From Gracilimonas sp. (GTDB lineage Bacteria; Bacteroidota; Rhodothermia; Balneolales; Balneolaceae), in contig NZ_JAVJQO010000007.1 in NCBI RefSeq assembly GCF_040218225.1, forward strand, positions 186,001 to 250,000: 64,000 nt of DNA. Direction: 5' to 3'. The notes below the pieces were generated by a model. It worked only from the letters and a program-made list of their open reading frames with translations. It was not told the DNA's origin and did no database searches. Shown piece by piece: positions 14,254 to 64,000 of this stretch. Every line of letters begins with the position of its first letter. Position 1 is the first letter of the stretch. Made by a program: the position numbers and the translations under genes.

Positions 14254-17200
14254 TTACTTGATAAGAGTCATCTTCTTGACAAGTACTTTATCGCCAACTT
14301 GTAAGCGATAGATATACATGCCAGATGACAGTGCCCGTGCATTGAACTGAACATTGTAGCGTCCTGAACTCTTGGTTTCGTTATTCAGAAGAGTAGCTAC
14401 TTTTCGGCCAAGCACATCAAATACTTCCAGTTTAACTTTACTCGCCTCTGGTACTCCAAACCTGATTACCGAAGTTGGGTTAAATGGATTCGGATAGTTT
14501 TGGTAGAGTTCCACTTCTGTAGGAATTCCAAGATCACTTTCGTTAGAAGTTCCCAGCCTTGAACTCATACTAAGTACAAAAAGTGGCTCAGCTTTCTCTT
14601 TTTTAGCCATTTGTACAACTTCACTTGAAGGAACCGGCTGCATTTCTTTAGCTACTTTTGATAAGCTGCTGTTATCAATACTGAACTCAAATGAACCCCC
14701 TTCATTCAGGTTGAATGACTTGCCAGTTTCTACAAGGGTCAATGTTGCAGATATACCTTCCGGCATGCGGCCATCCTTCCAGTTAAGGCTGAAGTTTCCT
14801 GAAACCGTAGCATCCATGAAAATTGGAAACTCCTTATCAAAGTCAGCTTCAAGAGGAACATTGTTGATCGTCAATGGCTGATCACCAATCAATGTATACA
14901 GATTCGCGAATGAGCTGGCAAAGGAGCCCAAATAGTACCCATCATAAGGATCTATGTTTGTTTTGGCCTTCTCACCGAATCGAAGGAATGAAGTAGACTC
15001 AATACCTGAGTTCTTATGTACAAGGTCGAACTCAAACATATCGGAATTCTGAATTTTCTCAGAGGGACTACTTTCCGAAACAATCACATCATGGTAATCA
15101 AAGCTTAGTGAACCTGAAGTTCCAGAATTGACAACCCTCACGAAGAATGACTCAAAAGCATCAATTTCTCCGGATGTTGAAAGTATGTAGGTTTTATTTA
15201 CCGGATCCCAGGTATACACATAGCTGTTGGCTAATTCATCGGTACGCTTCAGCGTAGCTATAACTGAGTCTGCAGAAATAGGCCATCCAAATGGATTACC
15301 TAGCAGGACAAATCCTTCACTGCCGGTTGTTCCACTTATACCATCTGCATCTACATTTTTGACCGGAACACTAGCGTTAAGACCAAAAAGATCTCCGGTA
15401 ATAGTTAATGTTTTTGGCCAACCGCCATCTACATCATCCTGACCATCAAGAATGTCATCGTCTTCAAACACGTAGACTAATAATCCTTCTCCGGCAGCAA
15501 GTGTAGTTGTGTCCAGGTCAGTAGTGACAGCTTGATATGCTGCGTTATCCGGATTGAAGGTGTAGATAGTTGCATCACTGCCTGGTGCGTCCGAATTCAC
15601 AGCGCCTTGCGTCCAAACAGGACTTATAAAGCTGCCAATAGATGAATTCTGAGGTATTGACAGTAAATACCAGCCATTCTCAGACTCATTATTTTCCAGA
15701 GTTGCTTCATCGCTATCGCTTACTCCAAATACAGCAAACACGGTGTCCAATTCTGTGACATCTGCTTCAGAATCATAATAGGAGAAGTAAAAGGTAGTGG
15801 TATCAATGGTTCCCCCTCCACTAATGTACATCAATTTAGATGTGGAAGGAGTAAATGACACTGGGTTCTCAGCATCATTAGCAGTAACAAATGGATCTGT
15901 ACCAGGCTCAGCAATTCCGTTTTCATTATCATCTGATACAATACCCACTTCAGCACCTCCGAAACCTGATATATGAAATTCGATAGTTGAATCTGCATAA
16001 ACAGGGTCGAAACCAAATACATCATTATCTAAGAGAATACTTCCAAACGAAGGACCTGAAACAACAGCAGCACTTATAGGCTCGCCATCATTTGCTTGAA
16101 AGCTGTATTCACCTCCGGTAGCCATGAACTGACTGAATGAAGTGATACCTGTCCAGGTGACTTCCCCTGTCGCGGCGTTTGCTGAGGTTGCTCCGCCAAC
16201 GGTTGTCCACGCTCCGGTTGAAGAAGAACCGCGCTTGTACAATGTCAGTAACTCAGGAAAGGTCTCCTGCTCAGCTGTAATTGCACCAGAACCAAAGTTT
16301 AGGGTAAGATCTGCTGAGAACGTACCCGGATCACCAAACAAATTGATTACAAAATATTTGCCCCCTATGCCGGCTGTAACACCCGCTGGGAACTGATTGG
16401 GACTTCCTGTCACTTCTGTTACTTGAACATCCACCGGGTTATCAAAGCCATCTGCCATACTTAAAGCGGCATTTCCAACGCTGACTGTTCCTGTCTGGAA
16501 GTCAGTGGTTTCTTCAACGGCTCCCTCTCCAATTGGAGCATCTGAAGTTACCCAGGTTTCCTCTATACCATCATAGAATTCTCCTTCATGGTTGTTGAGG
16601 CCATCGTATGTATAGCCACCTGAACCTTCATTAAACTGCCAGTATCCAGTTAAACGTCCCACAGGACCTGAATAAGTTCGGTGCATAAACGAGCGGATTT
16701 CGGACTCGGTTCGAACGGACTTCCAAATACGAAGCTCATCAATCGTTCCAAAGAAGTTTTTACTTCCATCTTCATCAGAACCAACAACCCAGTAGGACTC
16801 ATCCACAGATACATCTTCTACTGATACTGTATCCTGCTCTACTCCATTTACATACAGGGTTAGATAATCCCCTGAACGACCGGTTAGGGCCACATGGTAC
16901 CATTCACCAACTGAGGCTGTAATTGATCCGCCTAAGCCGTCAATTTCAGCTGAGGAGTATGAAGCTCCTGAACTTGTGGAGGTTGCAGATATTCCTTTTA
17001 AGAGACAGCATTCTCCTTCTCCTCCGCCTCCGCCTGCATTTGGTTCGGTATGGGTAGCATAAAATTGATTGGAACTGTTGATCCCAATAAACAAGTCATC
17101 ATAACCAAGGGCTATAAATACCTGATCTTGATTTATAACGTCCGGTTTTACCCACATTTCTACACTGAATTCACTGATGATTTCATAATCCTCAATGTAG

Positions 17201-19902
17201 ATCTCAATAAATTCTTCCTGCGTATTTCCACCATCAAACTGCACGGCATAACCGGCAGAATCCTGGAATGATTGAGTGATAGGTGTCGGTGCCGGACCTT
17301 TGGCGCGGGTGTAGGAGAAGCCTCCGCCATTTCCATTTGAGGTCCAGGAATCAAATGTTAAATCCAAATAAAGATTATCTGATTCAATATAAACAACCAT
17401 CTCAAGGCCAACCATTGAAGGTAAATCATATCCAAGACTATCCAGAATCGTATATTGCCAAGTATCAAATGTTAAAGTCCCGAGGTTATCCGTGTTACCA
17501 AATGCCCATTGTGTACCTGAAGGCGAAATATCTCCTCCATTCCATCCTGTTTCATCAGCATAATTGAATAACCCTTGCTCATCCTGTCTTGTGAGCCACA
17601 CATTATCTGTAATTCGATCCTGATTAGCCGCCTGAGTCCAATCCGCAAAATTAGCTTTTGTGAAAGTTAGAGTACTATCGTTTTTACTCCAAATTGTAGG
17701 AATTGGAGTTGTAGTTGCGTTGATTGTTGCACTTTCTGCTGTATAGAAGCGTTGACTTCCATTTGATCCATCATACTCAAATATGGCAAAATGATAGGTT
17801 GTTTCAGCGGTCAGACCGGTAATAGTTACAGACGCATCAGAACCGTCATATACAATGTAATTCCCTGAGCCAAGTTCAGTTCCACTTTGGAACGCTGCAT
17901 CAGCAGTATAAGAAGTACTATTGGTTGGAGTAGCATCCACAGCGGCGCCTTCTTTTGCTAACACTATTCTTGAAGTACCAATACTTGTTCCACTGTTCGA
18001 CCAATTTAATGTTATTGATGTACTTAACTGACTGGAAGACAAGTCTGAAACGATACCGGTTGGTGCCGTTCTGGTTGTAGCATTTGTAATTGTTATATCA
18101 CCTGTTTGATATTTAACAGATGGACCAGCTGCATTAAATTGAAATACTTCAACATGATAGGTTGTACCCGGGTCTAAGCCATCAACAGTAAACGAAGTAC
18201 TTATTCCGTCATAAACAACAAAGTTTCCAGTTCCTATCTCTGATCCACTTCCAAATGTACTGCTGGCTGTGTAGCTCACATCATCTGTAGGAGTTACATC
18301 TACTGCTCCTGCTTCTTTCATGAGAACCAATGCTTTAGTACCAAAACCTCCATTCATATTGAAACCAAGAGATGTACCCTGATTTGTATTTAAAGAGATA
18401 GAGGTAGGATTACTAGATGGCGCAGTAACTACCCCATTTTTGTAGACAGTAAGGGTTCCATTCACTGAGAATAAAATATCGAGGTCGCCGTCTCCGTCAG
18501 CGTCTGCTAAGTCGGTAACAAAACCAGTCCCATAACTTCTACTGAATGTACTGTAAGAATTAAAGTTCCCACTTCCATCATTAAATTGAATAACACTAGT
18601 GGGACCAAGCATTGCAATATCCAAATGACCATCATTATTTACATCTCCCACTTTAAGGTTATCTAAACCTTGTACAACGTCGAGGGCTCTTCGGGTAAAG
18701 GTACCATCTTGGTTGTTATCCATGATATATAAGCTGTCAGCTTTGAGTACCAAGTCGATATAGCCATCTCCATCAAAATCTCCTTGAGCCAGTCCCCTTA
18801 GAAAAGGATTTGAACTTATGCCTAAGGTATAGGTCTGATTTGTGAAACCACCGGATCCATCAGATAAAATTACACCTAGACTGTCATTGGTAGGACTGTC
18901 ATCAAAACCAACCTGTTTGATAACAGCAAAATCCGGGTAATCGTCATTATTAAAATCCCCTGAGATAGCAAACCTACCGGCTATACCTGAAAATATTCCT
19001 GCACCACTGGCTTCATTGAAAGTTCCTGCTGGATCATTAGTAAAAGGCCACAACCCCTGAATATTATCGCCGGCGATGAACAGATCATCGTCTCCATCCA
19101 CATCGAAATCAGAAAAAACGGCTCCCCCAATATCTGTAGGGTTCAAATTAGCATGAAATGAACTCGAGGAGCTTGAAAATGTACCGAAACCATCGTTGGT
19201 ATAAACGTAAAATGATCTCGTACTAGACCCAGGACTTACAACTACAACAATATCCAAATCCCCATCATTATCTATATCATTAAGAAGAATTCCTTTTGGA
19301 TTTGTCCCATCAGCAATATCATATGCATCTGCGGAAAAGTATGATTCAACACCATCTTGTTTTCTTAGAACATAGAACTTTGTATCATCAGATCTTCTTA
19401 ATATTACAGCATCCAGGTCTCCATCCCCATCTACATCACCAGCGTAGGTAAGAGTCGCAGAGTTATCACCGATCGTTCCTGTAAATGTACTCGATGAAGT
19501 AAAATAGCCTTCTCCAGTACCGTTTGTTTCTACCGTAAAATTGTAAAGGTGTGACCTTTGCAACCCATTAGTCTGTGCTTCATTAAGAATCTGGCTAACC
19601 CTAACTGTTATAATCTCTCCCGGAATAAAATCACTATCTGGGTCAAGGGTTAATGTAGTACCAAAAGCGTCCAGACTTTTAGTGGTTGTATAAATACCAC
19701 CCAGAGAGCCTTTCACTACAACGCTATTGGGTTGCTCCGCATTTAATTCGTTCATTGCCTCACTAAAAGATATAGTGATGTTTGAACTAACAGAAACATC
19801 AATAGCATTTCTCGAAGGAGAGAAACTCGTTATTGCAGGCTGAGCAAATAATGCCCCCGCCAGTGATGCCAAAAATGTTGTTATAAGTATCAATTGTTTC
19901 AT
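14254..19902 (-). CDS. 1882-aa T9SS-secreted multidomain surface protein
   Basis: Signal peptide at residues 1-21, then an SbsA-type Ig-like domain (~22-125, AITSFSPSRNAIDVSVSSN). Next come about seven FG-GAP/VCBS calcium-loop repeats (~150-490, such as GDVDGDGDLDAVIL and NDIDNDGDLDIVVV), consistent with a propeller. Two fibronectin-III-like segments (~500-740) precede a LamG/concanavalin-like domain (~890-1110, with WYHVALTGRSGDYLTLYVNG and IDELRIW). A beta-rich region leads to the type IX sorting tail (YQNYPNPFNP, then GRKVATL, ending MTLIK). LamG and FG-GAP parts suggest binding of sugars or matrix. It lies 12 bp after a receiver-only gene and is the second copy of the duplicated module. 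Confidence 0.88.
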   Translation of the reverse strand: MKQLILITTFLASLAGALFAQPAITSFSPSRNAIDVSVSSNITISFSEAMNELNAEQPNSVVVKGSLGGIYTTTKSLDAFGTTLTLDPDSDFIPGEIITVRVSQILNEAQTNGLQRSHLYNFTVETNGTGEGYFTSSSTFTGTIGDNSATLTYAGDVDGDGDLDAVILRRSDDTKFYVLRKQDGVESYFSADAYDIADGTNPKGILLNDIDNDGDLDIVVVVSPGSSTRSFYVYTNDGFGTFSSSSSSFHANLNPTDIGGAVFSDFDVDGDDDLFIAGDNIQGLWPFTNDPAGTFNEASGAGIFSGIAGRFAISGDFNNDDYPDFAVIKQVGFDDSPTNDSLGVILSDGSGGFTNQTYTLGISSNPFLRGLAQGDFDGDGYIDLVLKADSLYIMDNNQDGTFTRRALDVVQGLDNLKVGDVNNDGHLDIAMLGPTSVIQFNDGSGNFNSYSTFSRSYGTGFVTDLADADGDGDLDILFSVNGTLTVYKNGVVTAPSSNPTSISLNTNQGTSLGFNMNGGFGTKALVLMKEAGAVDVTPTDDVSYTASSTFGSGSEIGTGNFVVYDGISTSFTVDGLDPGTTYHVEVFQFNAAGPSVKYQTGDITITNATTRTAPTGIVSDLSSSQLSTSITLNWSNSGTSIGTSRIVLAKEGAAVDATPTNSTSYTADAAFQSGTELGSGNYIVYDGSDASVTITGLTAETTYHFAIFEYDGSNGSQRFYTAESATINATTTPIPTIWSKNDSTLTFTKANFADWTQAANQDRITDNVWLTRQDEQGLFNYADETGWNGGDISPSGTQWAFGNTDNLGTLTFDTWQYTILDSLGYDLPSMVGLEMVVYIESDNLYLDLTFDSWTSNGNGGGFSYTRAKGPAPTPITQSFQDSAGYAVQFDGGNTQEEFIEIYIEDYEIISEFSVEMWVKPDVINQDQVFIALGYDDLFIGINSSNQFYATHTEPNAGGGGGEGECCLLKGISATSTSSGASYSSAEIDGLGGSITASVGEWYHVALTGRSGDYLTLYVNGVEQDTVSVEDVSVDESYWVVGSDEDGSKNFFGTIDELRIWKSVRTESEIRSFMHRTYSGPVGRLTGYWQFNEGSGGYTYDGLNNHEGEFYDGIEETWVTSDAPIGEGAVEETTDFQTGTVSVGNAALSMADGFDNPVDVQVTEVTGSPNQFPAGVTAGIGGKYFVINLFGDPGTFSADLTLNFGSGAITAEQETFPELLTLYKRGSSSTGAWTTVGGATSANAATGEVTWTGITSFSQFMATGGEYSFQANDGEPISAAVVSGPSFGSILLDNDVFGFDPVYADSTIEFHISGFGGAEVGIVSDDNENGIAEPGTDPFVTANDAENPVSFTPSTSKLMYISGGGTIDTTTFYFSYYDSEADVTELDTVFAVFGVSDSDEATLENNESENGWYLLSIPQNSSIGSFISPVWTQGAVNSDAPGSDATIYTFNPDNAAYQAVTTDLDTTTLAAGEGLLVYVFEDDDILDGQDDVDGGWPKTLTITGDLFGLNASVPVKNVDADGISGTTGSEGFVLLGNPFGWPISADSVIATLKRTDELANSYVYTWDPVNKTYILSTSGEIDAFESFFVRVVNSGTSGSLSFDYHDVIVSESSPSEKIQNSDMFEFDLVHKNSGIESTSFLRFGEKAKTNIDPYDGYYLGSFASSFANLYTLIGDQPLTINNVPLEADFDKEFPIFMDATVSGNFSLNWKDGRMPEGISATLTLVETGKSFNLNEGGSFEFSIDNSSLSKVAKEMQPVPSSEVVQMAKKEKAEPLFVLSMSSRLGTSNESDLGIPTEVELYQNYPNPFNPTSVIRFGVPEASKVKLEVFDVLGRKVATLLNNETKSSGRYNVQFNARALSSGMYIYRLQVGDKVLVKKMTLIK

Positions 19903-20602: not shown

Positions 20603-23600
20603 TTACTTAATCAGCATCATCTTACGGGTCTTCACATGCTTACCGGCTACAATTCGGTAGAGATACATGCCCGAAGCCAGGCGTGAGGCATCGAAGTTGA
20701 CCTGGTGCCAGCCGGCTCGTTGCCGTTCTCCGTTCACCAGGGTGGCTACTTTTCGGCCCAGCATGTCGAATACTTCAAGGCGTACTTCACTGCTCTGCGG
20801 TACGCCGTAGCGAATTATGGTGGAAGGGTTAAATGGGTTCGGGTAGTTTTGATGCAATTTGAAGTCCTCCGGAATCTGAGCCATAAGTTCAGCTGAAGTT
20901 ATAAAGCTCGGATCGATACGTACTTCCAGGGTATCCAGCGAAACGATGTTCTCGTTGTTGGCCACCTGAATGGCTACAAAGAAGGTATCGGCATCGGCTC
21001 TTGTAGTAATCGAAAGCTCGCCACTGGTATTATCAAAACCAACCGTTTCGGCAGTATCTGATACGATACCAAAGCTGAATTGCAGTTGCTCATCCGGTGT
21101 TGTAGCATCACTCACATACTCCCAGAGATTCATAATACGGGTATCTTCGGTAGCTATCTCAAACGGATTAGGCAAGTCGGAGAACACCGGCTTGTCATTC
21201 ACACCCTGCTGCCCACCCCAGGCAACGGTAATGTTATTGGCCTCACGCAGTGCCTTCATGGCGTTTGCCCCGGCTTCAGTGAGTTCTATATCACCAATAT
21301 CGATACTCACACTGTCCTGCAAGTCAAGCTTGGCCCACTCCACGAACATATTACTGGCATTTTCAGAACTCATTCCGGATCCTACCAGGAACCCACCCAT
21401 AGCATCTTCAATTGTAGAAGTAACAGATTTTTTTCTACTGTCAACACCCCTACATGTGTTTTGCTCATAAAATGGTGGACTCGATGGTGAATTATAAAGT
21501 TCGCTATTACCCCAACATTCTACATTTGCTGGATTCCAACCGCTTATATCTTGGTTGAAAGAAGAAGCTCCATAAAACATGTTTGTCATTTCCTGAGTTT
21601 CAACAACCTCCCATGCTTCACCTGTTTTATTATTGAGTTTACTATTAAAGGATTTAGCCCCCCTAAACATGCCTTTCATAGCTTTAACCTCTCTTACATC
21701 CCACATCAGAATGTTATCAAACATTTTTTGGCTACTACCACTAGCTACTTTTTGCGAACTACTTCCCGGAGCAAATCCATTATTAAAGTAATATGCATTA
21801 ACAAACATGGCATTCATGTTGGTAACCGAGGCGGTATTCCATGAACTCAGATCCTGATTAAACTTGGATGATGCGAACATAAATCCCATATCCGTTACAT
21901 TAGATACATCCCATTTATCCAATGGTTGATTAAAGTTCGTAGGTGTAAATCTTATGTTAACTCGCCTTGTAGCAGCAAACATACTGTACATATTGTTAAC
22001 TGAGGAAACATCCCATTCGTTTAAGGGCTTATTGAACGATGTAGCACCAAAAAACATGTTCATCATGTTTGTAACCCTCGACACATCCCAGTTACCAATA
22101 TCCTGGTTGAAGACCTGATTACCATAAAACATGTTACTCATTGTTGTTACATTAGATACGTCCCAGTTTCCTATAGGCTGATTAAAATCCGTAACGTTGA
22201 GGAACATATCATCCATGTTCGTTATTAAACTCGTACAAACATTGGTTACATCTTGACCAGCATCAACCCTTGTTTTTAAGCTATCTCTACTGAGTGCTTT
22301 ATAAGTAACAGTACCTAAAATACCTGTATCATTTGGATTGGCTTCTTTGCAAGTGACAGTAATTCCATTATCAGCGATAAAGAATTTAATTTCTTCTACA
22401 TCCGTTACTGTGATCGTTAATGTGGTACTGGCGGAGTTATTGCCCGTCGCCCCGTCATCGGCCTGAATAGTCACCTCATATACGTTGTTTGTATCTGCAT
22501 CGGAAGGGTTTTCAAAATCGGGCGAACTGTTAAAGCTCAATATCCCTGTTGCTGCTTCAATGGCAAAAGCTCCCGCGTCAGCCCCACCGGTAATGGAGTA
22601 GCTCAATCCTACATCAACAGCCCCTCCGTCTCCATCCGTTGCATTTATATCGATCACCGTGCCTGTGCCGTTTTCGGCAAAATTGACTGTCATCGGAGCG
22701 CCCACGCTATACAAGCTATACTCAACAACAGCAGCATCACTGCCTCCAGTCACATACATCTTCGTGCCGTTCCCGTTAAAAGTAAAGCCATATGGTTCTA
22801 ATTCTTGCCCCCCTACATAGAATTCCTGTTCTGCGCCTGCGTACACTGCTGTAGATATATCATAGGCTGTACTCAGATTGAACTCAACCACCGTATCAGA
22901 AAAATCAGGATACCCATCAAGCACAAACATCTTCGTGCCGTCCCCGTTAAAGGCTAAATCCATTACTCCTCGGGCTTGATTACTCACAAATTCCTCATTA
23001 GCCCCCGCATACGCCGCCGTGGATACATCATAGGCTGTACTCAGATTGTACTCAGTCACCTCCGCCTCCTCAACTGAAACCACAAACATCTTTGTGCCGT
23101 CCCCATTGAAGGTTAAGTCAATTGGAGTTGGGGATTGAGCCCCAACATAGAATTCCTCTTCAGCCCCCGCATACGCTGCTGTGGATACATCATAAGCCAC
23201 CCCAAGGGTGTACTCCACCACCGCATCATCAGTCCCAACCACAAACATTTTAGTGCCGTCCCCGTTGAAGGTAAGGCCAGCCGCTGCTGGCTCCTGATCA
23301 CCTACATAGAATTCCTCTTCAGCCCCCGCATACACCGCTGTGGACACATCATAGGCCACGCCTAAGGTATACTCCACCACTGCATCACTATCGTCGATTC
23401 CGATCACATACATCTTCGTGCCGTTCCCGTTAAAAGTAAGGCCATATGGTAGTAATTCTTGCCCCCCTACATAGAATTCCTCTTCAGCTCCTGCATACAC
23501 CGCCGCTGATACATCGTATGGAGCGCTGAAAATTGGGGCATTGTTGCCTTCATTGACAGTGACCACAAAGGTGTCATCTACAAATAACTCACCATCACTG

Positions 23601-26600
23601 GCCCGTACGGTAATGTTGGCTGTACCAAATTGATCGGTTTGATAATCCAGGGTAAGCGTCGAACCGCTTATGGTTGCGGTAACCAACGCTGGGTTACCGT
23701 TCGACTCGATGGTATAGGTCAGAGATCCAGATGCTGTTTCGGCATCGCTGAAGCTGGTGCTTAGGTCAACTACTGTGTTCGCCGCATTCTCATCTACCGT
23801 TACATCCGCTATGGGTGTAGTTACTGTGGGGGTTTCATTCACATCGGTAACCGTGATCGTTAATGTGGTACTGGCGGTATTGTTTTCAGCCTCCCCATCA
23901 TCAGCCTGGATGGTGACCACATATTCATTATTTTCATCCGCGTCGCCAGGATTCTCAAAGTCAGGTGCTGTCACAAAGGTCAGTATCCCGGTAGCCGCCT
24001 CAAAAGCAAACGCTGCGGCATCGGCCCCACCGGTAATGGAGTAGCTAAGGCCTACATCAGCGGCCCCTCCTTCTCCATCGGTGGCATTAATATCGATCAC
24101 CGTGCCGGTACCGTTTTCGGCAAACTCGGTTGTCGTCGGAGCGATGCCTAAGGTGTATTCTACCACCGCTCCATCAGCTCTTCCAACCATAAACATCTTC
24201 GTGCCGTCCCCATTAAAGAGAACACCCTCTGGCGCTATATCCTGAGCCGCTACAGAGAATTCCTCTTCAGCGCCCGCATACACCGCCGTGGACACATCAT
24301 AGGCCGTACCCAAATGGTACTCCACCACCGCACCATCACCATCTCCGAGCACAAACATCTTCGACCCATCCCTGTTGAAGGTTAAGTCATTAGCATTTGG
24401 CTCCTGAGCCCCTACATAGAATTTCTCTTCAGCGCCCGCATACAACGCCGTGGATACATCATAGGCCGTATCCAAATGGTACTCCTCCACCTCAGCACCT
24501 ATTCCGATCACAAACATCTTCGTGCCATCCCCGTTGAAGGCAAGGCCAGTTAATGCTAACTCCGGTTCCGCTAGATAGAATGCCTCTTCGGCGCCCGCAT
24601 ACACCGCCGTGGATACATCATAGATCGTCCCTAGGGTGTACTCCACCACCGTATGATTACTAGTTCCAAGCACAAACATCTTCGTGCCGTTCCCGTTGAA
24701 GGTCAAATCAAAAGGTTGTGGCTCCTGAGCCCCTACATAGAATTCTTCCTCAGCGCCCGCATACACTGCTGTGGATATATCATAAGCCGTCCCCAGGGTG
24801 TACTCCGCAACCGAAGAATTAATTCCTACCGCAAACATCTTCGTGCCGTCCCCATTAAATCTGAAGCCTAGTGGAAATGCCACCTGATCCCTTACAGAGA
24901 ATTCAACGCCCGCATACACCGCGGTGGACACATCGTAGGGCGCGGCAAAAACAGGGGCATTGTTAACTTCATTGACGGTCACCAAAAAGGTCTCATCTAC
25001 AAACAACTCACCATCACTGGCCCGTACGGTAATGTTGGCTGTACCAAATTGATCGGTTTGATAATCCAGGGTTAAGATTGAACCATCGATAGATGCCGTA
25101 ACCAGTGTGGGATTGTCGTTGGACTCAACGGTATAAGCCAACGAACCTGAAGCCGTCTCTGCATCACTAAAAGTGGTACTCAGGTCAAACAACGCATTTG
25201 TTACGTTTTCATTCACCGTTATATCTGCAATCGGAGAACTTACCACCGGGGCCGTATTGTTTAAAATTACAGGATCTGTTCCTGCACTTGTCACGCTTTC
25301 TGAAGTCCCCTCCCCATCGGTATAACTTGCAATAACCGTTATTACTGATCCCACATCGGCCAGAGTTAAAGTGTAGGTACTATTGGTCGCTCCGGAAATA
25401 TCTATTCCATCACGCTGCCATTGATAACTGATGGTTCCTAATCCATCTGCATCTGCTAAAGTATTGCTTGCTGTCAAGGTTTCATCTTCTTGAGCTATTC
25501 CTGAAATCGTTACTGATCCTGTGGGAGCATCATTTACATTAGCAACCGAAGACGTTTCTGCACTTGTCACGCTTTCTGCAGTCCCTTCGCCATCGGTGTA
25601 GCTCGCAGCTACCGTGATCACTGATCCCACATCACTCTGAGTTAAGGTATAGGTAGAAGCTGTAGCACCCGCAATATCCACACCACCTCGCTGCCATTGG
25701 TAAGTGATAGCACCTAAACCATCTTCATCTGCCAGAGTATTGCTGGCCGTCAAAGTTTCGTCTTCTTGCGCTGTTCCTGAGATGGTTATTGATCCTGTAG
25801 GGACATCATTTACATTAACAACCGAAGCCGTTCCTGCACTTGTTACGCTTTCAGCAGTCCCTTCGCCATCGGTGTAGCTCGCAGCTACCGTGATCACTGA
25901 TCCTACATCATTCTGAGTTAAGGTATAGGTAGAAGCTGTAGCACCCGCAATATCAATACCACCTCGCTGCCATTGGTAGGAAATCGCTCCCAAACCATCT
26001 GCATCTGCCAAATTATTACTCGCCGTCAAAGTTTCATCTTCTTGGGCTGTTCCTGAAATTATTACCGATCCGGTGGGATCGCTATTCACAAATACAGCTC
26101 CGAAAATAGCTTGCAGATTCGGATAGCCATTATTTTTTGAAACATCTAAACCCCAAACATTAGTAAAGTCCCATCCGGCATCTGTAAATATGGATTGAGT
26201 TTTCATCTCCGTAGTGGTTTTCCCGGTTATTCCGGTTGTACTTCCTATACCCGTTGCATTAGCTTTTCCACTGGTCTGATTATCCCAAAAGGTATTAGTA
26301 GCAGCAGCAAAACCATTTTTTTGACCAATAAAACCACCTACATTCGTAGAACCCGTTACTGATCCGGCAGAGTAACTGTTCGAAACAATTCCACTGTTAT
26401 AGTTCCCGGCAAAACCTCCTACATTGGTATCTCCACTGACAGAACCGGTGGCAAAACTGTTGTCTACATTATCGTAACTAAAACCAATTAGTCCACCCAC
26501 ATTATTCGCGCTTCCTGTCACATCACTTGCTGAATAACTTTCCGAGACGGTTCCCAAACTATGCAACCCAATCAACCCGCCAATATCCTGCGTTCCAGCT

Positions 26601-27787
26601 ACCGTACCTGCTGAATAGCTTTCACTAATCGTTGAATTGTTTAGCCCAACAAGTCCTCCTACCACCGCTGATCCATCAACACCTCCATTGGCATAGCTAC
26701 CCGAAACTGTTCCATTATTTTCACCAGCCAGACCACCGGTATTGCCACCACCTGATATTGATAGTTGCTCTAATCCAATGTTTGAAACCGAACCACCGTC
26801 CCCAATCACAGCAAACAACCCTACATAATCTTCTGTAGCTCGGTCTATAGTCAGCCCTGTAATTACAAATCCCTGCCCATCAAGGCTTCCCGTAAATGCT
26901 GTACTACCTCCTATGGGTACAAACCCTGCTCCTGAATTCCATGTTGATGTCGCTGATGCATCTAAATCATTATTCAGCACAAAATGTAAAGACGGACTGT
27001 CTTTCAGTGCCTGTAATTGTTCAAGGGTCTCTACTTGATAAGGGTCTGCTTCAATTCCCGTTCCTCCAGCAAAACTTACAGATACTGATTCACCCTGTAC
27101 AGGTCCTACCAATGAACTTTCTCCTGAAGTTCCGGCATCAACCCCATCACTTGGAATGACAGAGAAACTCATGTGTTTACCTTCATCAGCAGAAACTAAT
27201 GTGTAGGTAGTTGCGTCTGCTCCACCAATAGCTGTTTTATTCGTTCCTCCGCTGTCATCGCTTCTATACCATGTGAATACAGAGCCACTTTCAGGGTCGC
27301 TATCTAGATCATCATAATCATAGGAACCGGTTAGAGTTTCCCCTACTTCCAATGTTCCACTTATTGATACATTGGAAACCGTTGGAGGATTATTTCCTCC
27401 ACCTCCACCACTACCACCAATAGGACCAACAGGATTACTTGGAGTAGGCATTCCTGTTTCTGTACCATTAGAAGGGGTCACTTCAAACACAATTACCTGG
27501 CCTGCATCTTCTGCAACCAGTGTATAAGTTACTGCGGTAGCACCATCGATAAGCACGGGTGGATCGAATTCACTGGCTAACCGATACCACTGATAGGTTG
27601 AACCCTCTTCCGGAAAGCCATTAGGGTCGTTATAATCATAGCTACCGGTAAGGGTTTCACCTACTTCCAGCAATCCTGTGATCTCCACGAAGTCTGCAAT
27701 AGGGCCTGAGGGTGGTGGAGGAAACTGAGCCCATAATGTAGTTATATTAAATAAAACTATGGGGAGTAGAAGAATCAGTTTTTTCAT
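20603..27787 (-). CDS. 2394-aa T9SS-secreted adhesin-like protein
   Basis: Signal peptide ~1-21. Then two Ig-like units (GLLEVGETLTGSYDY), a GLUG-repeat beta-helix region (~230-540, repeats like GGLVGLNNSTISESYSAG), and three near-identical bacterial Ig-like repeats (~580-850, SGTAQEDETLTASNTLADADG). After that a ~473-residue block occurs twice in tandem (~860-1800): a cadherin-like unit, five ~52-residue propeller-like repeats (YDVSTAVYAGAEEEFYVG then LTFNGDGTKMFVVG), and another cadherin-like unit. A BspA/DUF285 region follows (~1850-2170, FNQPIGNWDVSNVTTMSNMF). The end is a type IX sorting tail (YQNYPNPFNP ... MMLIK). Cell-surface adhesion is the likely role. The start codon overlaps the REC stop by 4 nt. 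Confidence 0.88.
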   Translation of the reverse strand: MKKLILLLPIVLFNITTLWAQFPPPPSGPIADFVEITGLLEVGETLTGSYDYNDPNGFPEEGSTYQWYRLASEFDPPVLIDGATAVTYTLVAEDAGQVIVFEVTPSNGTETGMPTPSNPVGPIGGSGGGGGNNPPTVSNVSISGTLEVGETLTGSYDYDDLDSDPESGSVFTWYRSDDSGGTNKTAIGGADATTYTLVSADEGKHMSFSVIPSDGVDAGTSGESSLVGPVQGESVSVSFAGGTGIEADPYQVETLEQLQALKDSPSLHFVLNNDLDASATSTWNSGAGFVPIGGSTAFTGSLDGQGFVITGLTIDRATEDYVGLFAVIGDGGSVSNIGLEQLSISGGGNTGGLAGENNGTVSGSYANGGVDGSAVVGGLVGLNNSTISESYSAGTVAGTQDIGGLIGLHSLGTVSESYSASDVTGSANNVGGLIGFSYDNVDNSFATGSVSGDTNVGGFAGNYNSGIVSNSYSAGSVTGSTNVGGFIGQKNGFAAATNTFWDNQTSGKANATGIGSTTGITGKTTTEMKTQSIFTDAGWDFTNVWGLDVSKNNGYPNLQAIFGAVFVNSDPTGSVIISGTAQEDETLTASNNLADADGLGAISYQWQRGGIDIAGATASTYTLTQNDVGSVITVAASYTDGEGTAESVTSAGTASVVNVNDVPTGSITISGTAQEDETLTASNTLADEDGLGAITYQWQRGGVDIAGATASTYTLTQSDVGSVITVAASYTDGEGTAESVTSAETSSVANVNDAPTGSVTISGIAQEDETLTASNTLADADGLGTISYQWQRDGIDISGATNSTYTLTLADVGSVITVIASYTDGEGTSESVTSAGTDPVILNNTAPVVSSPIADITVNENVTNALFDLSTTFSDAETASGSLAYTVESNDNPTLVTASIDGSILTLDYQTDQFGTANITVRASDGELFVDETFLVTVNEVNNAPVFAAPYDVSTAVYAGVEFSVRDQVAFPLGFRFNGDGTKMFAVGINSSVAEYTLGTAYDISTAVYAGAEEEFYVGAQEPQPFDLTFNGNGTKMFVLGTSNHTVVEYTLGTIYDVSTAVYAGAEEAFYLAEPELALTGLAFNGDGTKMFVIGIGAEVEEYHLDTAYDVSTALYAGAEEKFYVGAQEPNANDLTFNRDGSKMFVLGDGDGAVVEYHLGTAYDVSTAVYAGAEEEFSVAAQDIAPEGVLFNGDGTKMFMVGRADGAVVEYTLGIAPTTTEFAENGTGTVIDINATDGEGGAADVGLSYSITGGADAAAFAFEAATGILTFVTAPDFENPGDADENNEYVVTIQADDGEAENNTASTTLTITVTDVNETPTVTTPIADVTVDENAANTVVDLSTSFSDAETASGSLTYTIESNGNPALVTATISGSTLTLDYQTDQFGTANITVRASDGELFVDDTFVVTVNEGNNAPIFSAPYDVSAAVYAGAEEEFYVGGQELLPYGLTFNGNGTKMYVIGIDDSDAVVEYTLGVAYDVSTAVYAGAEEEFYVGDQEPAAAGLTFNGDGTKMFVVGTDDAVVEYTLGVAYDVSTAAYAGAEEEFYVGAQSPTPIDLTFNGDGTKMFVVSVEEAEVTEYNLSTAYDVSTAAYAGANEEFVSNQARGVMDLAFNGDGTKMFVLDGYPDFSDTVVEFNLSTAYDISTAVYAGAEQEFYVGGQELEPYGFTFNGNGTKMYVTGGSDAAVVEYSLYSVGAPMTVNFAENGTGTVIDINATDGDGGAVDVGLSYSITGGADAGAFAIEAATGILSFNSSPDFENPSDADTNNVYEVTIQADDGATGNNSASTTLTITVTDVEEIKFFIADNGITVTCKEANPNDTGILGTVTYKALSRDSLKTRVDAGQDVTNVCTSLITNMDDMFLNVTDFNQPIGNWDVSNVTTMSNMFYGNQVFNQDIGNWDVSRVTNMMNMFFGATSFNKPLNEWDVSSVNNMYSMFAATRRVNIRFTPTNFNQPLDKWDVSNVTDMGFMFASSKFNQDLSSWNTASVTNMNAMFVNAYYFNNGFAPGSSSQKVASGSSQKMFDNILMWDVREVKAMKGMFRGAKSFNSKLNNKTGEAWEVVETQEMTNMFYGASSFNQDISGWNPANVECWGNSELYNSPSSPPFYEQNTCRGVDSRKKSVTSTIEDAMGGFLVGSGMSSENASNMFVEWAKLDLQDSVSIDIGDIELTEAGANAMKALREANNITVAWGGQQGVNDKPVFSDLPNPFEIATEDTRIMNLWEYVSDATTPDEQLQFSFGIVSDTAETVGFDNTSGELSITTRADADTFFVAIQVANNENIVSLDTLEVRIDPSFITSAELMAQIPEDFKLHQNYPNPFNPSTIIRYGVPQSSEVRLEVFDMLGRKVATLVNGERQRAGWHQVNFDASRLASGMYLYRIVAGKHVKTRKMMLIK
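22390..25260 (-). repeat. Intragenic tandem duplication (period ~1419 bp) in the adhesin gene
   Basis: The tract CCCGTACGGTAATGTTGGCT occurs at 23602 and again at 25021, an offset of 1419 bp (473 codons). The flanking domain order (cadherin-like, five propeller-like repeats, cadherin-like) is the same in both halves. Within each half a ~155-165 bp repeat encoding YDVSTAVYAGAEEEF is itself repeated about five times. Coordinates are approximate domain limits. Confidence 0.8.
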
Positions 27788-59425: not shown

Positions 59426-60655
59426 TCAATTCCCCAGGCCTTGCCACTTTTTTGCGAAACGGGCATACTCCTCGGCCTTGTCGTTACGGCCAAATTTTCT
59501 ATATGAATCAGAGACCATTTGAGAAGCTTCTGCCAGTCGCTGATAGTCCATTTTACTTGGACTTGAAGCTGACCCCTGAAGCGCCGGCACCTTAAGTGAC
59601 CTGTTATTTTTCAAAGAATCCGGGTGAGTGTCCATGGTGAAGTTAGCCTGATATATCAGCGGCCAGAATTGGGACTTGCCATATACTTTTTTGGCAATTA
59701 CCCAATACCACTCATCTTTCTTTACTGTATAAGTGGTAGTCGTGATTTCACTGCTGGAACCTGAGGTTTCTTTTTCCTCTATCCCTGCAGAAGAAGATGC
59801 AGCGGGTGGTTCTTTTTTCGCAGGAGTCTGAGTATTTGCAGATTCATTATTTGCCTGTACAGGCTCTTTGGCTTCTCCGCTACCTGAAGGCCGATCATTG
59901 GATGCTTGCGGCGTTCGGGGTTGTTCAACTCTAGCCTGCTGTGTTGGCATATTTGTTGGCTCGGTTCGCAAAAAGAACCACCAGACAGGCACTAGCGCAA
60001 CAGCTAATAACGCAGCTATCACCAATATCAGGGCAAAATTATTGCTTTTTTCTTTTTTCTCCTCCCGTACAAAAGGTTCCCGGGAAACCGGCTCAGGTTC
60101 TTCTTCCTTCTCTGATGTGGATTCCGTTTCGTCAAATGCAAAAGGATCTTCTTGAGGCTCTTGTTCTTCAACCGTCTCTTCAGCCTGAAATTCTTCCGCC
60201 TTTTCTTCTTGCTCTTCTATTTCCTCTTCGGGTTCATCATCAAACTGAAAAATGGTGTCTTTTTTCTCTTCTTCAGGCTCCTGTGGTTTTTCCTCTCGGG
60301 AAACAGGAACAGCTGTCGTCGATTCTTTGGACTTCTCCCCAAGCAATTCAGTTTCCAGGTGTGAGAACTTAGCATTTACATCTTCGCGCAAAGCTTTATA
60401 GGGAGTAAAAGAAACTCGTTTATGCGCCGGAATCGTTATCGGTTCACCGGTTTGGGGGTTCTGACCTTGTCGTTCAGCTACTTCTTTTACCTTAAAACTC
60501 CCGAAATTGGTAATCGAGGCTTTGCCTGTTTCATCAAGTTCCTGCTTAACTCTTGATATCAGCGCTTTTGCAAATGCTTCACTTTTCTGTTTACTAAAAC
60601 CCGTTTTCCGCGATAAGGCTTCAATAATCTCAGCATATGTGACTTTGTTACTCAT
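59426..60655 (-). CDS. HU-TM-LysM fusion protein
   Basis: A 409-aa protein with an unusual architecture. Residues ~1-95 are an HU/IHF-type DNA-binding domain (VTYAEIIEALSRKTGFSKQK, and the DNA-clasping arm RQGQNPQTGEPITIPAHKR). A Glu-rich cytoplasmic linker (~115-200) leads to one TM helix (~205-228, ALILVIAALLAVALVPVWWF), a Pro/Ser/Gln-rich periplasmic spacer, a LysM-like domain (~308-362, TYTVKKDEWYWVIAKKVYG), and a helical end (~365-409). It could bind chromosome and peptidoglycan at once. Its start overlaps the upstream HU gene by 8 nt. Confidence 0.88.
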   Translation of the reverse strand: MSNKVTYAEIIEALSRKTGFSKQKSEAFAKALISRVKQELDETGKASITNFGSFKVKEVAERQGQNPQTGEPITIPAHKRVSFTPYKALREDVNAKFSHLETELLGEKSKESTTAVPVSREEKPQEPEEEKKDTIFQFDDEPEEEIEEQEEKAEEFQAEETVEEQEPQEDPFAFDETESTSEKEEEPEPVSREPFVREEKKEKSNNFALILVIAALLAVALVPVWWFFLRTEPTNMPTQQARVEQPRTPQASNDRPSGSGEAKEPVQANNESANTQTPAKKEPPAASSSAGIEEKETSGSSSEITTTTYTVKKDEWYWVIAKKVYGKSQFWPLIYQANFTMDTHPDSLKNNRSLKVPALQGSASSPSKMDYQRLAEASQMVSDSYRKFGRNDKAEEYARFAKKWQGLGN

Positions 60656-60935
60656 CTTCAGCCTCGTTTATTTGGTCCCGAAGTGTACTGCTTTGACTAT
60701 AATGCACCACTCTTTTTTTCGGAATAAGCATCATTTGCTCATAATGGGGGTTGTACGACTTATGCTCTTCCCTGACCTCTGACTTAAAACTACCCAATCC
60801 GGGCAGGGTGAATCCTTTTCCTTTGGATAGAAGCATGGTGAGTCCTTCAACGAAAGAATCATATAGATCTTCCGTCTCGGTCTGTGTGAGCTCAAGCTCT
60901 TCCGCTAATTGTTTGAGTACCTCCGACTTTGTCAT
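60648..60935 (-). CDS. Divergent HU family DNA-binding protein
   Basis: A 95-aa HU-fold protein: helices KSEVLKQLAEELELTQTETE and DLYDSFVEGLTMLLSKG, the GFTLPGLGSFKSEVRE saddle, and an arm YNPHYEQMMLIPKKRVVHYS that lacks the usual PxTGE..IPA tip sequence. That makes it a divergent member. The stop overlaps the start of the HU-TM-LysM gene by 8 nt; they are coupled and may form heterodimers. Confidence 0.85.
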   Translation of the reverse strand: MTKSEVLKQLAEELELTQTETEDLYDSFVEGLTMLLSKGKGFTLPGLGSFKSEVREEHKSYNPHYEQMMLIPKKRVVHYSQSSTLRDQINEAEDE

Positions 60936-62369: not shown

Positions 62370-64000
62370 CTATTTAACCAGCGTCATTTTCTTGGTGAAA
62401 ACAGCATCATCAATTTTCAATCGATAAAAATAGATACCCGAACTTAGTCCTTGTGCATTAAAGGGAATGGAATAGGAGCCCAGCAGATATTGCCGGTTCG
62501 TAAGGGTTTGAACCTTTCTGCCTGTGATATCATACACGATTAACTCTACGAAAGCCGATTGCGGAAGCTCAAAATCTATATTGGTTGTCGGGTTAAAGGG
62601 GTTTGGGTAGTTTTGATAAATCTTTATGGATTTCGGTAAATCTGCGTACTCAGGATCACGAATGGTTATCATATTTCCATCCTTGCCCAGCAGTAAATTT
62701 ATATTCCGCGTCGAAACGCTGCTGCTGTAATTTGCAATTACTACTCCTACCTTTTCCACCTCTTGCCAGGAAATTTCACTTGGAACATAGACCTGAGCTT
62801 TATTCTCTCCCGTTGCTATAATCTCATTCATTTCACCATTATCCATATAAAATAGCACCCCGATACCAACCTGGGTGCTATCGAAATCTACAGCTACTTC
62901 GGCAAAACCCTCATCAGAAGAAGCGGGTGTAATTTCAAAATAACGGGCTGCCAGCGGCCGTATATCATCCGCCTCAACAGCTTCAGCGGGCACTTCATTG
63001 AACGCGCCTTCAAGATTGGAATAAGGGTAAAATTCCTTCTCGCCAAAGCCGTAATCATCCTGACCGGCACGACTGCCAGAAGCAAAATGCCAAAGGTGGT
63101 TTCTCACAAAGGTAGTCGAAAATTCTTCCCCCCGATCCGGAAGTAATTCCAGTAATGCGTCGTTAATACTAAGCGTATTCTCATCTTCTATTAATTGCCA
63201 GACATCTCTCCAGAGCTCATCTCCGAAATACTCACTGTAAAAAATCATCCAGCTTACATGCCAGTAAGCGCCGGGTGTACTATTTTCCGGAGCAAAGAAA
63301 ATGGAGGCAGAATATGGGCTTGAGGAGTTCAAGCCATTCTTGATGTAATTGTAATAATCATTCACATCATCATATACGACCTCTTCAAACAGAGTAGCAT
63401 CCATTTCCGCCCAATTAAAAGCACCAGATGGCGATGTCCATTCATTTTGAGCATACTGAATAGCATGCTTTAACTCGTGGGCCACTGTTGCATACACTGC
63501 TCCAACCTGGTTGCCCTCAGGATGGGTATTCGGGGGAAAGTTCTCAAAGTCATTCTCCATCACAATATATGTTTCAGGACCTGAGCCACCCTGAAAAATA
63601 GTCTCGCCATAATAGGGAATGTCTCGAATTTCAATGGTATAAGTAGTTCCATTCGGAATCGGGTCTTTGAACCCCAGATTAATCACTTCATGCCGGTAAG
63701 AAGAATCAGCTGACTCAGCAACCAGATCCACATAATCAGGAACCCCATTTCCATCATTATCTTCTATAGATACCGAATCATCTCCTGTGGTTTCATATAT
63801 AATCTCAAATTTTCCTGAGGGGGATATATAACTTTGAAGAGCTTTTTTCTTTTGTGTTGATGATCGGGAAGAGCGCATCGCCTCGACCTCCGCTAAACCC
63901 TTCGATGAAATTTGATCTCTATATGCATGAAGAAACATTTCTGCAGGAGTTGCACACTTGTGAAGGAAGCTGACAGGTGTTTTCTTTAAAATCCTGAATT
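62370..64000 (-). CDS. T9SS-secreted putative zinc protease (5' end outside window)
   Basis: The frame stays open from the ATG at 63938 to the window edge (residues KTPVSFLHKCATPAE before it), so the true start lies beyond the window. Counting from that ATG, an HExxH site is at His154 (VAHELKHAIQYAQN), with a downstream Glu pair (FNWAEMDATLFEEVVYDD) as candidate third ligand. DNDGNGVPDYVD resembles a calcium loop. The C-terminus is a type IX sorting tail (YQNYPNPFNP, YDITGRKVQTL, ending MTLVK). It belongs with the secreted zincins of the MXAN_6640 kind; substrate unknown. Confidence 0.82.
   Translation of the reverse strand, partial: FRILKKTPVSFLHKCATPAEMFLHAYRDQISSKGLAEVEAMRSSRSSTQKKKALQSYISPSGKFEIIYETTGDDSVSIEDNDGNGVPDYVDLVAESADSSYRHEVINLGFKDPIPNGTTYTIEIRDIPYYGETIFQGGSGPETYIVMENDFENFPPNTHPEGNQVGAVYATVAHELKHAIQYAQNEWTSPSGAFNWAEMDATLFEEVVYDDVNDYYNYIKNGLNSSSPYSASIFFAPENSTPGAYWHVSWMIFYSEYFGDELWRDVWQLIEDENTLSINDALLELLPDRGEEFSTTFVRNHLWHFASGSRAGQDDYGFGEKEFYPYSNLEGAFNEVPAEAVEADDIRPLAARYFEITPASSDEGFAEVAVDFDSTQVGIGVLFYMDNGEMNEIIATGENKAQVYVPSEISWQEVEKVGVVIANYSSSVSTRNINLLLGKDGNMITIRDPEYADLPKSIKIYQNYPNPFNPTTNIDFELPQSAFVELIVYDITGRKVQTLTNRQYLLGSYSIPFNAQGLSSGIYFYRLKIDDAVFTKKMTLVK

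What the first reader, a model, noticed from the sequence alone, without database searches (positions are those of the whole stretch)
59426..60935. HU gene coupled to an HU-TM-LysM fusion: a possible chromosome-to-cell-wall tether
The 409-aa protein puts a DNA-binding HU domain with the canonical arm (NPQTGEPITIPA) in the cytoplasm and a LysM-like domain in the periplasm across one TM helix. The overlapping upstream gene encodes a divergent HU that could be its partner. This would link nucleoid and peptidoglycan physically, for instance for chromosome placement or envelope sensing.
Basis: partly seen in the sequence, partly recalled or inferred. Interest (0 to 1): 0.66.

Follow-up and report, generated by a model that had tools for sequence, protein, structure and literature searches.

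The report
Membrane-anchored HU pair with LysM domain
Two overlapping genes encode two paired DNA-binding histone-like (HU) proteins, one of which crosses the inner membrane and ends in a cell-wall-type (LysM) domain outside, a combination conserved as a unit in two classes of Bacteroidota that may tie the bacterial chromosome to the cell envelope.

Summary
Window 59426-60655 (-) encodes HU, acidic linker, one TM helix, a LysM-like domain and a C-terminal helical hairpin (409 aa). Window 60648-60935 (-) encodes a divergent 95-aa HU (HU1) overlapping it by 8 bp. In the 92 family genomes searched, the fusion is in 74 and absent from 18; HU1 is found wherever contigs allow (72 genomes) and never without the fusion. 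The same pair lies between rimO and moxR in Bacteroidia, and in one genome HU1 and HU2 are fused into one polypeptide. Trees put the fusion HUs of both classes, and the HU1s of both classes, in clades apart from soluble HUs. All 35 relatives tested have one TM with N-in charge bias overall; the fusion's DNA-binding arm is conserved in Balneolaceae. The genome also carries a better-known relative, HU + HU-TM-SPOR (85 of 89 family genomes). Best reading: a membrane-anchored HU1:HU2 heterodimer that binds DNA at the inner membrane and engages peptidoglycan, a nucleoid-envelope tether. Pairing, topology and arm conservation are well supported; DNA binding, peptidoglycan binding and tethering are inferred. 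New variant of a known kind (HU-TM-SPOR).

The parts
60648..60935 (-). HU1: 95-aa divergent HU/IHF-like protein, presumed dimer partner
   Evidence: PF00216 1.7e-19; conserved upstream of the fusion in the family loci
60744..60755 (-). HU1 arm tip YNPH (residues 61-64); P63 and H64 invariant in 23 relatives
60648..60655 (.). 8-bp overlap of HU1 stop and fusion start (translational coupling likely)
   Evidence: overlaps of 4 or 8 bp are usual in relatives
59426..60655 (-). HU-TM-LysM fusion, 409 aa
60374..60640 (-). HU domain (residues 6-94), IHF/HU-like
   Evidence: PF00216 3.4e-26; PDB matches to IHF/HU
60425..60460 (-). DNA-binding beta-arm NPQTGEPITIPA (66-77); R62, G64, P67, T69, I75, P76, F83, K87 invariant in 22 Balneolaceae fusions
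60041..60358 (-). acidic cytoplasmic linker (100-205), fast-evolving
59969..60040 (-). single TM helix (about 206-229), N-in by positive-inside rule
59582..59743 (-). LysM-like domain (305-358)
   Evidence: NCBIfam PRK11198 8.4e-7; AF2 beta-alpha-alpha-beta; Foldseek to Kbp 7pvc
59432..59560 (-). C-terminal two-helix hairpin (366-408), TPR-like

Best explanation
HU1 and the HU domain of the fusion form an IHF-like heterodimer whose arms intercalate and bend DNA. The fusion's TM helix fixes this dimer to the inner membrane at the end of a long acidic linker, and the periplasmic LysM engages peptidoglycan or a peptidoglycan-associated partner. The result is a dispensable anchor between nucleoid and envelope, parallel to the HU-TM-SPOR system in the same genome. 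Shown here: gene pairing, topology signal, domain conservation, common ancestry of the pair. Inferred: heterodimer formation, DNA bending, peptidoglycan binding, tethering role.
For: Co-occurrence: 71 of 92 family genomes hold both with strong matches; of three more with the fusion, G028 and G071 are cut by contig ends and G078 has a diverged HU1 on reading; the 18 genomes without the fusion lack HU1. HU1 is the only constant neighbour. One Bacteroidia genome (L100:976-2061) joins HU1+HU2+TM+LysM in one polypeptide, and the known HU-TM-SPOR proteins carry two HU domains in cis. HU-domain tree: fusion HUs of both classes group (98/97), HU1s group (100/99), apart from soluble HUs. Arm residues are invariant in 22 Balneolaceae fusions and HU1 keeps P63 in all 23 aligned. 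HU dN/dS 0.01-0.06. One TM in 35/35; K+R 3.09 on the N side vs 0.89 on the C side, N>C in 32, N<C in 1. LysM homology.
Against: No direct evidence of DNA or peptidoglycan binding. In the window's genus the LysM loop GDTLW reads DEWYW, and the nearest solved LysM is that of Kbp, a potassium-binding protein. In Bacteroidia the fusion HU has lost the arm proline (VNVNTGE), and G078 has degenerate arms in both partners, so DNA intercalation may be dispensable there. The pair is missing from 18 family genomes, several near-complete, so it is not essential across the family.
Confidence: 0.5

Rival explanations
1. Membrane scaffold: the HU dimer is a protein-protein module (as proposed for CCDC81-type HUs, and as the HTH of RodZ is), positioning cell-wall or division proteins; DNA is not the ligand.
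For: The paralogous HU-TM-SPOR HU domains appear to lack a canonical NPxTG arm; Bacteroidia fusion HUs lost the arm proline; G078 has degenerate arms.
Against: Strict conservation of R62, G64, P67, T69, I75, P76 and K87 in Balneolaceae fusions and of P63 in HU1 fits DNA binding; Bacteroidia HU1 keeps NPxT-type arms.
Confidence: 0.25
2. Transmembrane signalling: LysM senses the envelope and the HU dimer alters transcription or local supercoiling, like ToxR-type one-component regulators.
For: Cytoplasmic DNA-binding-type domain, single TM, periplasmic domain.
Against: No conserved target gene next to the pair: neighbours vary (hemW in 21 of 39 loci, Dabb-like gene in 15; rimO/moxR in Bacteroidia); HU/IHF proteins are architectural; long variable linkers do not suit allosteric relay.
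Confidence: 0.1
3. Membrane-anchored nucleoid protein whose LysM binds a protein or ion rather than peptidoglycan.
For: Best LysM matches are Kbp and contractile-injection or phage baseplate LysMs; altered GDTLW loop in this genus.
Against: Other genera keep canonical GESLWSIA-type loops and the domain faces the periplasm where peptidoglycan lies.
Confidence: 0.25

Closest known systems
HU-CCDC81_bac_1/bac_2 - TM - SPOR proteins of Bacteroidota (PF18174, PF18175, PF05036)
   Same: Two HU domains, variable linker, single TM, periplasmic peptidoglycan-type domain; same phylum; a split two-gene version lies in this very genome (contig 4).
   Different: SPOR instead of LysM; HU domains CCDC81-like and, in the cases read, without a canonical arm; elsewhere both HUs sit in one polypeptide.
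IHF (himA/himD heterodimer)
   Same: Two divergent HU-fold subunits; both window HUs score best against IHF models.
   Different: IHF is soluble, without TM or LysM; both proteins fall far below the IHF curated cut-offs (67 and 45.9 bits vs 111 for IHF alpha).
Rv3852 of Mycobacterium tuberculosis
   Same: Membrane-anchored nucleoid-associated protein tied to cell-wall synthesis, not essential (PMC8233713).
   Different: Not an HU protein by its description (annotated as H-NS), C-terminal TM, acts through Wag31; no periplasmic wall domain is described.
E. coli Kbp (YgaU)
   Same: LysM subtype (7pvc, 54 columns, rmsd 2.1, prob 1.00, E 0.05).
   Different: Kbp is soluble with a BON domain and no HU or TM (established knowledge, not tested).

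Membership tests
HU/IHF superfamily (PF00216) | match above curated cut-off | tested here: met
   91.7 and 70.3 bits vs 22.4
HU/IHF superfamily (PF00216) | beta-arm with the intercalating proline (NPxTG type) | tested here: met
   fusion NPQTGE, P67 invariant; HU1 YNPHY, P63 invariant
IHF | above NCBIfam IHF alpha/beta cut-offs | tested here: not met
   67/47.4 and 45.9/43.8 bits vs 111/115
HU-CCDC81-TM-SPOR | PF18174/PF18175 domains above cut-off | tested here: not met
   HU1 only 12.7 bits vs 35 for PF18175; no such hit for the fusion
HU-CCDC81-TM-SPOR | C-terminal SPOR domain | tested here: not met
   no PF05036 hit; LysM-like instead
HU-CCDC81-TM-SPOR | two HU domains, one TM, extracytoplasmic wall-type domain | tested here: met
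   as two genes in the window; fused in L100
LysM | beta-alpha-alpha-beta fold | tested here: met
   AF2 pLDDT 84.9, but only 1 of 5 models good; Foldseek to Kbp and other LysMs, none with E<=0.001
LysM | Pfam PF01476 above cut-off | tested here: not met
   11.4 bits vs 20.9 for the window copy; met by Bacteroidia L083 and L096
LysM | peptidoglycan/GlcNAc binding | not testable with these tools
   needs a sacculus binding assay

The most novel reading that the evidence does not exclude
A two-gene system that physically bridges bacterial DNA and peptidoglycan through a single membrane-spanning polypeptide, with an obligate HU1:HU2 heterodimer as DNA clamp, inherited as a unit since before the split of Balneolaceae and Bacteroidia.
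Probability: 0.4. Interest if true: 0.75.

Novelty: new variant of a known kind. Interest (0 to 1): 0.56.

Why it matters
How chromosomes are coupled to the envelope in Bacteroidota is poorly known. A conserved but dispensable two-gene pair with a canonical HU arm on one side of the membrane and a wall-type domain on the other makes a nucleoid-envelope link directly testable by simple deletions, arm mutants and LysM swaps. The genome carries a parallel HU-TM-SPOR pair, so redundancy can be tested too.

Tried and rejected
Chance ORF or misannotation: rejected by conservation and dN/dS. Defence gene: no PADLOC match. Restriction to the window's family: rejected, orthologous pairs exist in Bacteroidia, though none was found in the rest of the window's class at this sensitivity. 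Conserved operon with metabolic neighbours: rejected, neighbours vary. Full-length AF2 from 3 sequences: HU region of low confidence (mean pLDDT 55.7), so not used for the HU. Literature searches found no paper on HU-TM-LysM; Burroughs et al. 2017 (PMC5499826) is not held and is known here only by its title in reference lists. Phyla other than Bacteroidota were not searched.

Full report
What is there. On the minus strand, 60648..60935 encodes a 95-aa HU-like protein (HU1) and 59426..60655 a 409-aa protein, the two overlapping by 8 bp. Pfam finds the HU fold in both (PF00216, 3.4e-26 and 1.7e-19); NCBIfam scores both best against IHF models but far below their cut-offs. The large protein reads HU (6-94), acidic linker (100-205), one TM helix (about 206-229), a second linker, a LysM-like domain (305-358) and a C-terminal helical hairpin (366-408). 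The LysM is divergent in this genus: PF01476 gives only E 0.34, but NCBIfam PRK11198 gives 8.4e-7 here and matches 22 of 22 relatives. Other genera show plain LysM motifs such as GESLWSIAE...LWPMIY..N...NPN.I...L.VP. An AF2 model of the tail has pLDDT 84.9, with the caution that the other four models were near 50. Foldseek matches its LysM core to Kbp (7pvc, rmsd 2.1, prob 1.00, E 0.05) and to other LysMs; no match reaches E 0.001.

Topology. All 35 relatives tested have exactly one segment above Kyte-Doolittle 1.6. Positive residues average 3.09 in the 15 residues on its N side and 0.89 on its C side, with N>C in 32 and N<C in 1. This is the signal of a single-pass protein with HU inside and LysM outside. 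It is a charge-rule inference, not an experiment.

Pairing. The window lies in a 3.54-Mb, 98.6% complete genome; its named relatives are Gracilimonas, i.e. Balneolaceae. In 92 genomes of the same family the fusion is found in 74 and not in 18. Profile A2 finds HU1 (E <= 9.6e-26) in 71 genomes, all of them fusion-positive. Of the other three, G028 and G071 are cut by contig ends and G078 has a diverged HU1 that the strong threshold missed but that is visible on reading. In the 18 fusion-negative genomes the best HU1-profile match is 2.8e-15, taken to be a soluble HU. G078 shows that the profile can miss a degenerate HU1, so absence means absence at this sensitivity. The gene overlap is kept in most loci (usually 4 or 8 bp by the likely starts). 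No other neighbour is constant over 39 loci: convergent hemW, as here, is seen in 21.

Wider range. No other family of the window's class gave a fusion. In Bacteroidia, however, the same two genes lie between rimO (with ftsY further upstream where read) and moxR in several genomes, and a Bacteroidia profile finds the fusion in 26 of 198 genomes of that order at E <= 1e-18, over many families. These are lower bounds. In G559 (L100:976-2061) HU1, a shortened HU2, TM and LysM are one polypeptide in the same rimO-moxR slot: a natural fusion of the two partners, seen in one genome. A tree of HU domains joins the fusion HUs of both classes (98/97) and the HU1s of both classes (100/99), each apart from soluble HUs (98 columns, so finer forks are unresolved). 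The simplest reading is that the pair was inherited together, or moved together, as a unit.

Selection. Between the window and close relatives, dN/dS is 0.01-0.06 on the HU domain and 0.01-0.11 on HU1, where dS is not saturated; linkers evolve fast and LysM nonsynonymous divergence is low in the two nearest pairs. In 22 Balneolaceae fusions R62, G64, P67, T69, I75, P76, F83 and K87 are invariant, and in 23 HU1s P63, H64, P72 and K74. These include the arm and the intercalating-proline position known from HU/IHF. In Bacteroidia the fusion HU has lost that proline (VNVNTGE) while HU1 keeps NPxT-type arms, so most pairs read keep at least one canonical arm. G078 has degenerate arms in both partners (an 89% complete genome with 7% contamination).

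A parallel system in the same genome. Contig 4 carries a 65-aa HU gene followed 3 bp later by a 539-aa HU-acidic-TM-SPOR protein, upstream of TolQ/TolR/TonB-like genes (named by eye). It is found in 85 of 89 family genomes, including several that lack the LysM pair. Other Bacteroidota carry PF18174+PF18175+TM+SPOR in one protein. That is the known kind to which the window's pair is closest. The window's pair fails membership on the HU subtype and on the C-terminal domain but has the same plan.

How it most likely works. HU1 and HU2 form a heterodimer (supported by co-occurrence, adjacency, the natural fusion and the tandem HUs of the SPOR relatives; not shown biochemically). The dimer binds and bends DNA (arm conservation; inferred). 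The TM holds it at the inner membrane on a long flexible acidic linker, and LysM engages peptidoglycan or a wall-bound partner (inferred, and the weakest step, because the glycan-binding loop is altered in this genus and the nearest solved LysM belongs to Kbp, a potassium-binding protein). The absence of the pair from several near-complete genomes says it is dispensable, perhaps backed up by the SPOR pair. A membrane-anchored nucleoid protein that affects wall synthesis has a precedent in Rv3852 (PMC8233713).

Prior art. Burroughs et al. 2017 (Cell Cycle 16:1093, PMC5499826) by its title covers HU/IHF clades and chromosome partitioning; the text is not held. From memory it predicts a chromosome-partition role for Bacteroidetes CCDC81-type HUs. 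Whether it mentions LysM fusions I could not check. This lowers novelty to a variant of a known kind.

Noticed in passing
G000 contig 4, L085:3539-5359 (L006:1285-3105): Second pair of the same plan: 65-aa HU gene followed 3 bp later by HU-acidic-TM-SPOR (539 aa), directly upstream of TolQ/TolR/TonB-like genes; near-universal in the family.
   Followed up: partly
L100:976-2061 (G559): HU1, shortened HU2, TM and LysM in one polypeptide between rimO and moxR.
   Followed up: yes
L087:523-1909 (G078): DNA-binding arms are degenerate in both HU1 and the fusion HU of the same genome, as if lost together.
   Followed up: partly
window 59432-59560; L034 and L047 C-termini: The helical tail after LysM differs between genera (short hairpin vs a longer GYxxxYQW...ARYFLWAVG type) and is absent or different in Bacteroidia; TPR-like, role unknown.
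   Followed up: no
window 62370-63938 (-), 14254-19902 (-), 20603-27787 (-): Large proteins ending in YPNPFNP-type C-terminal sorting domains; the first matches Por_Secre_tail (PF18962, 1.4e-10).
   Followed up: no
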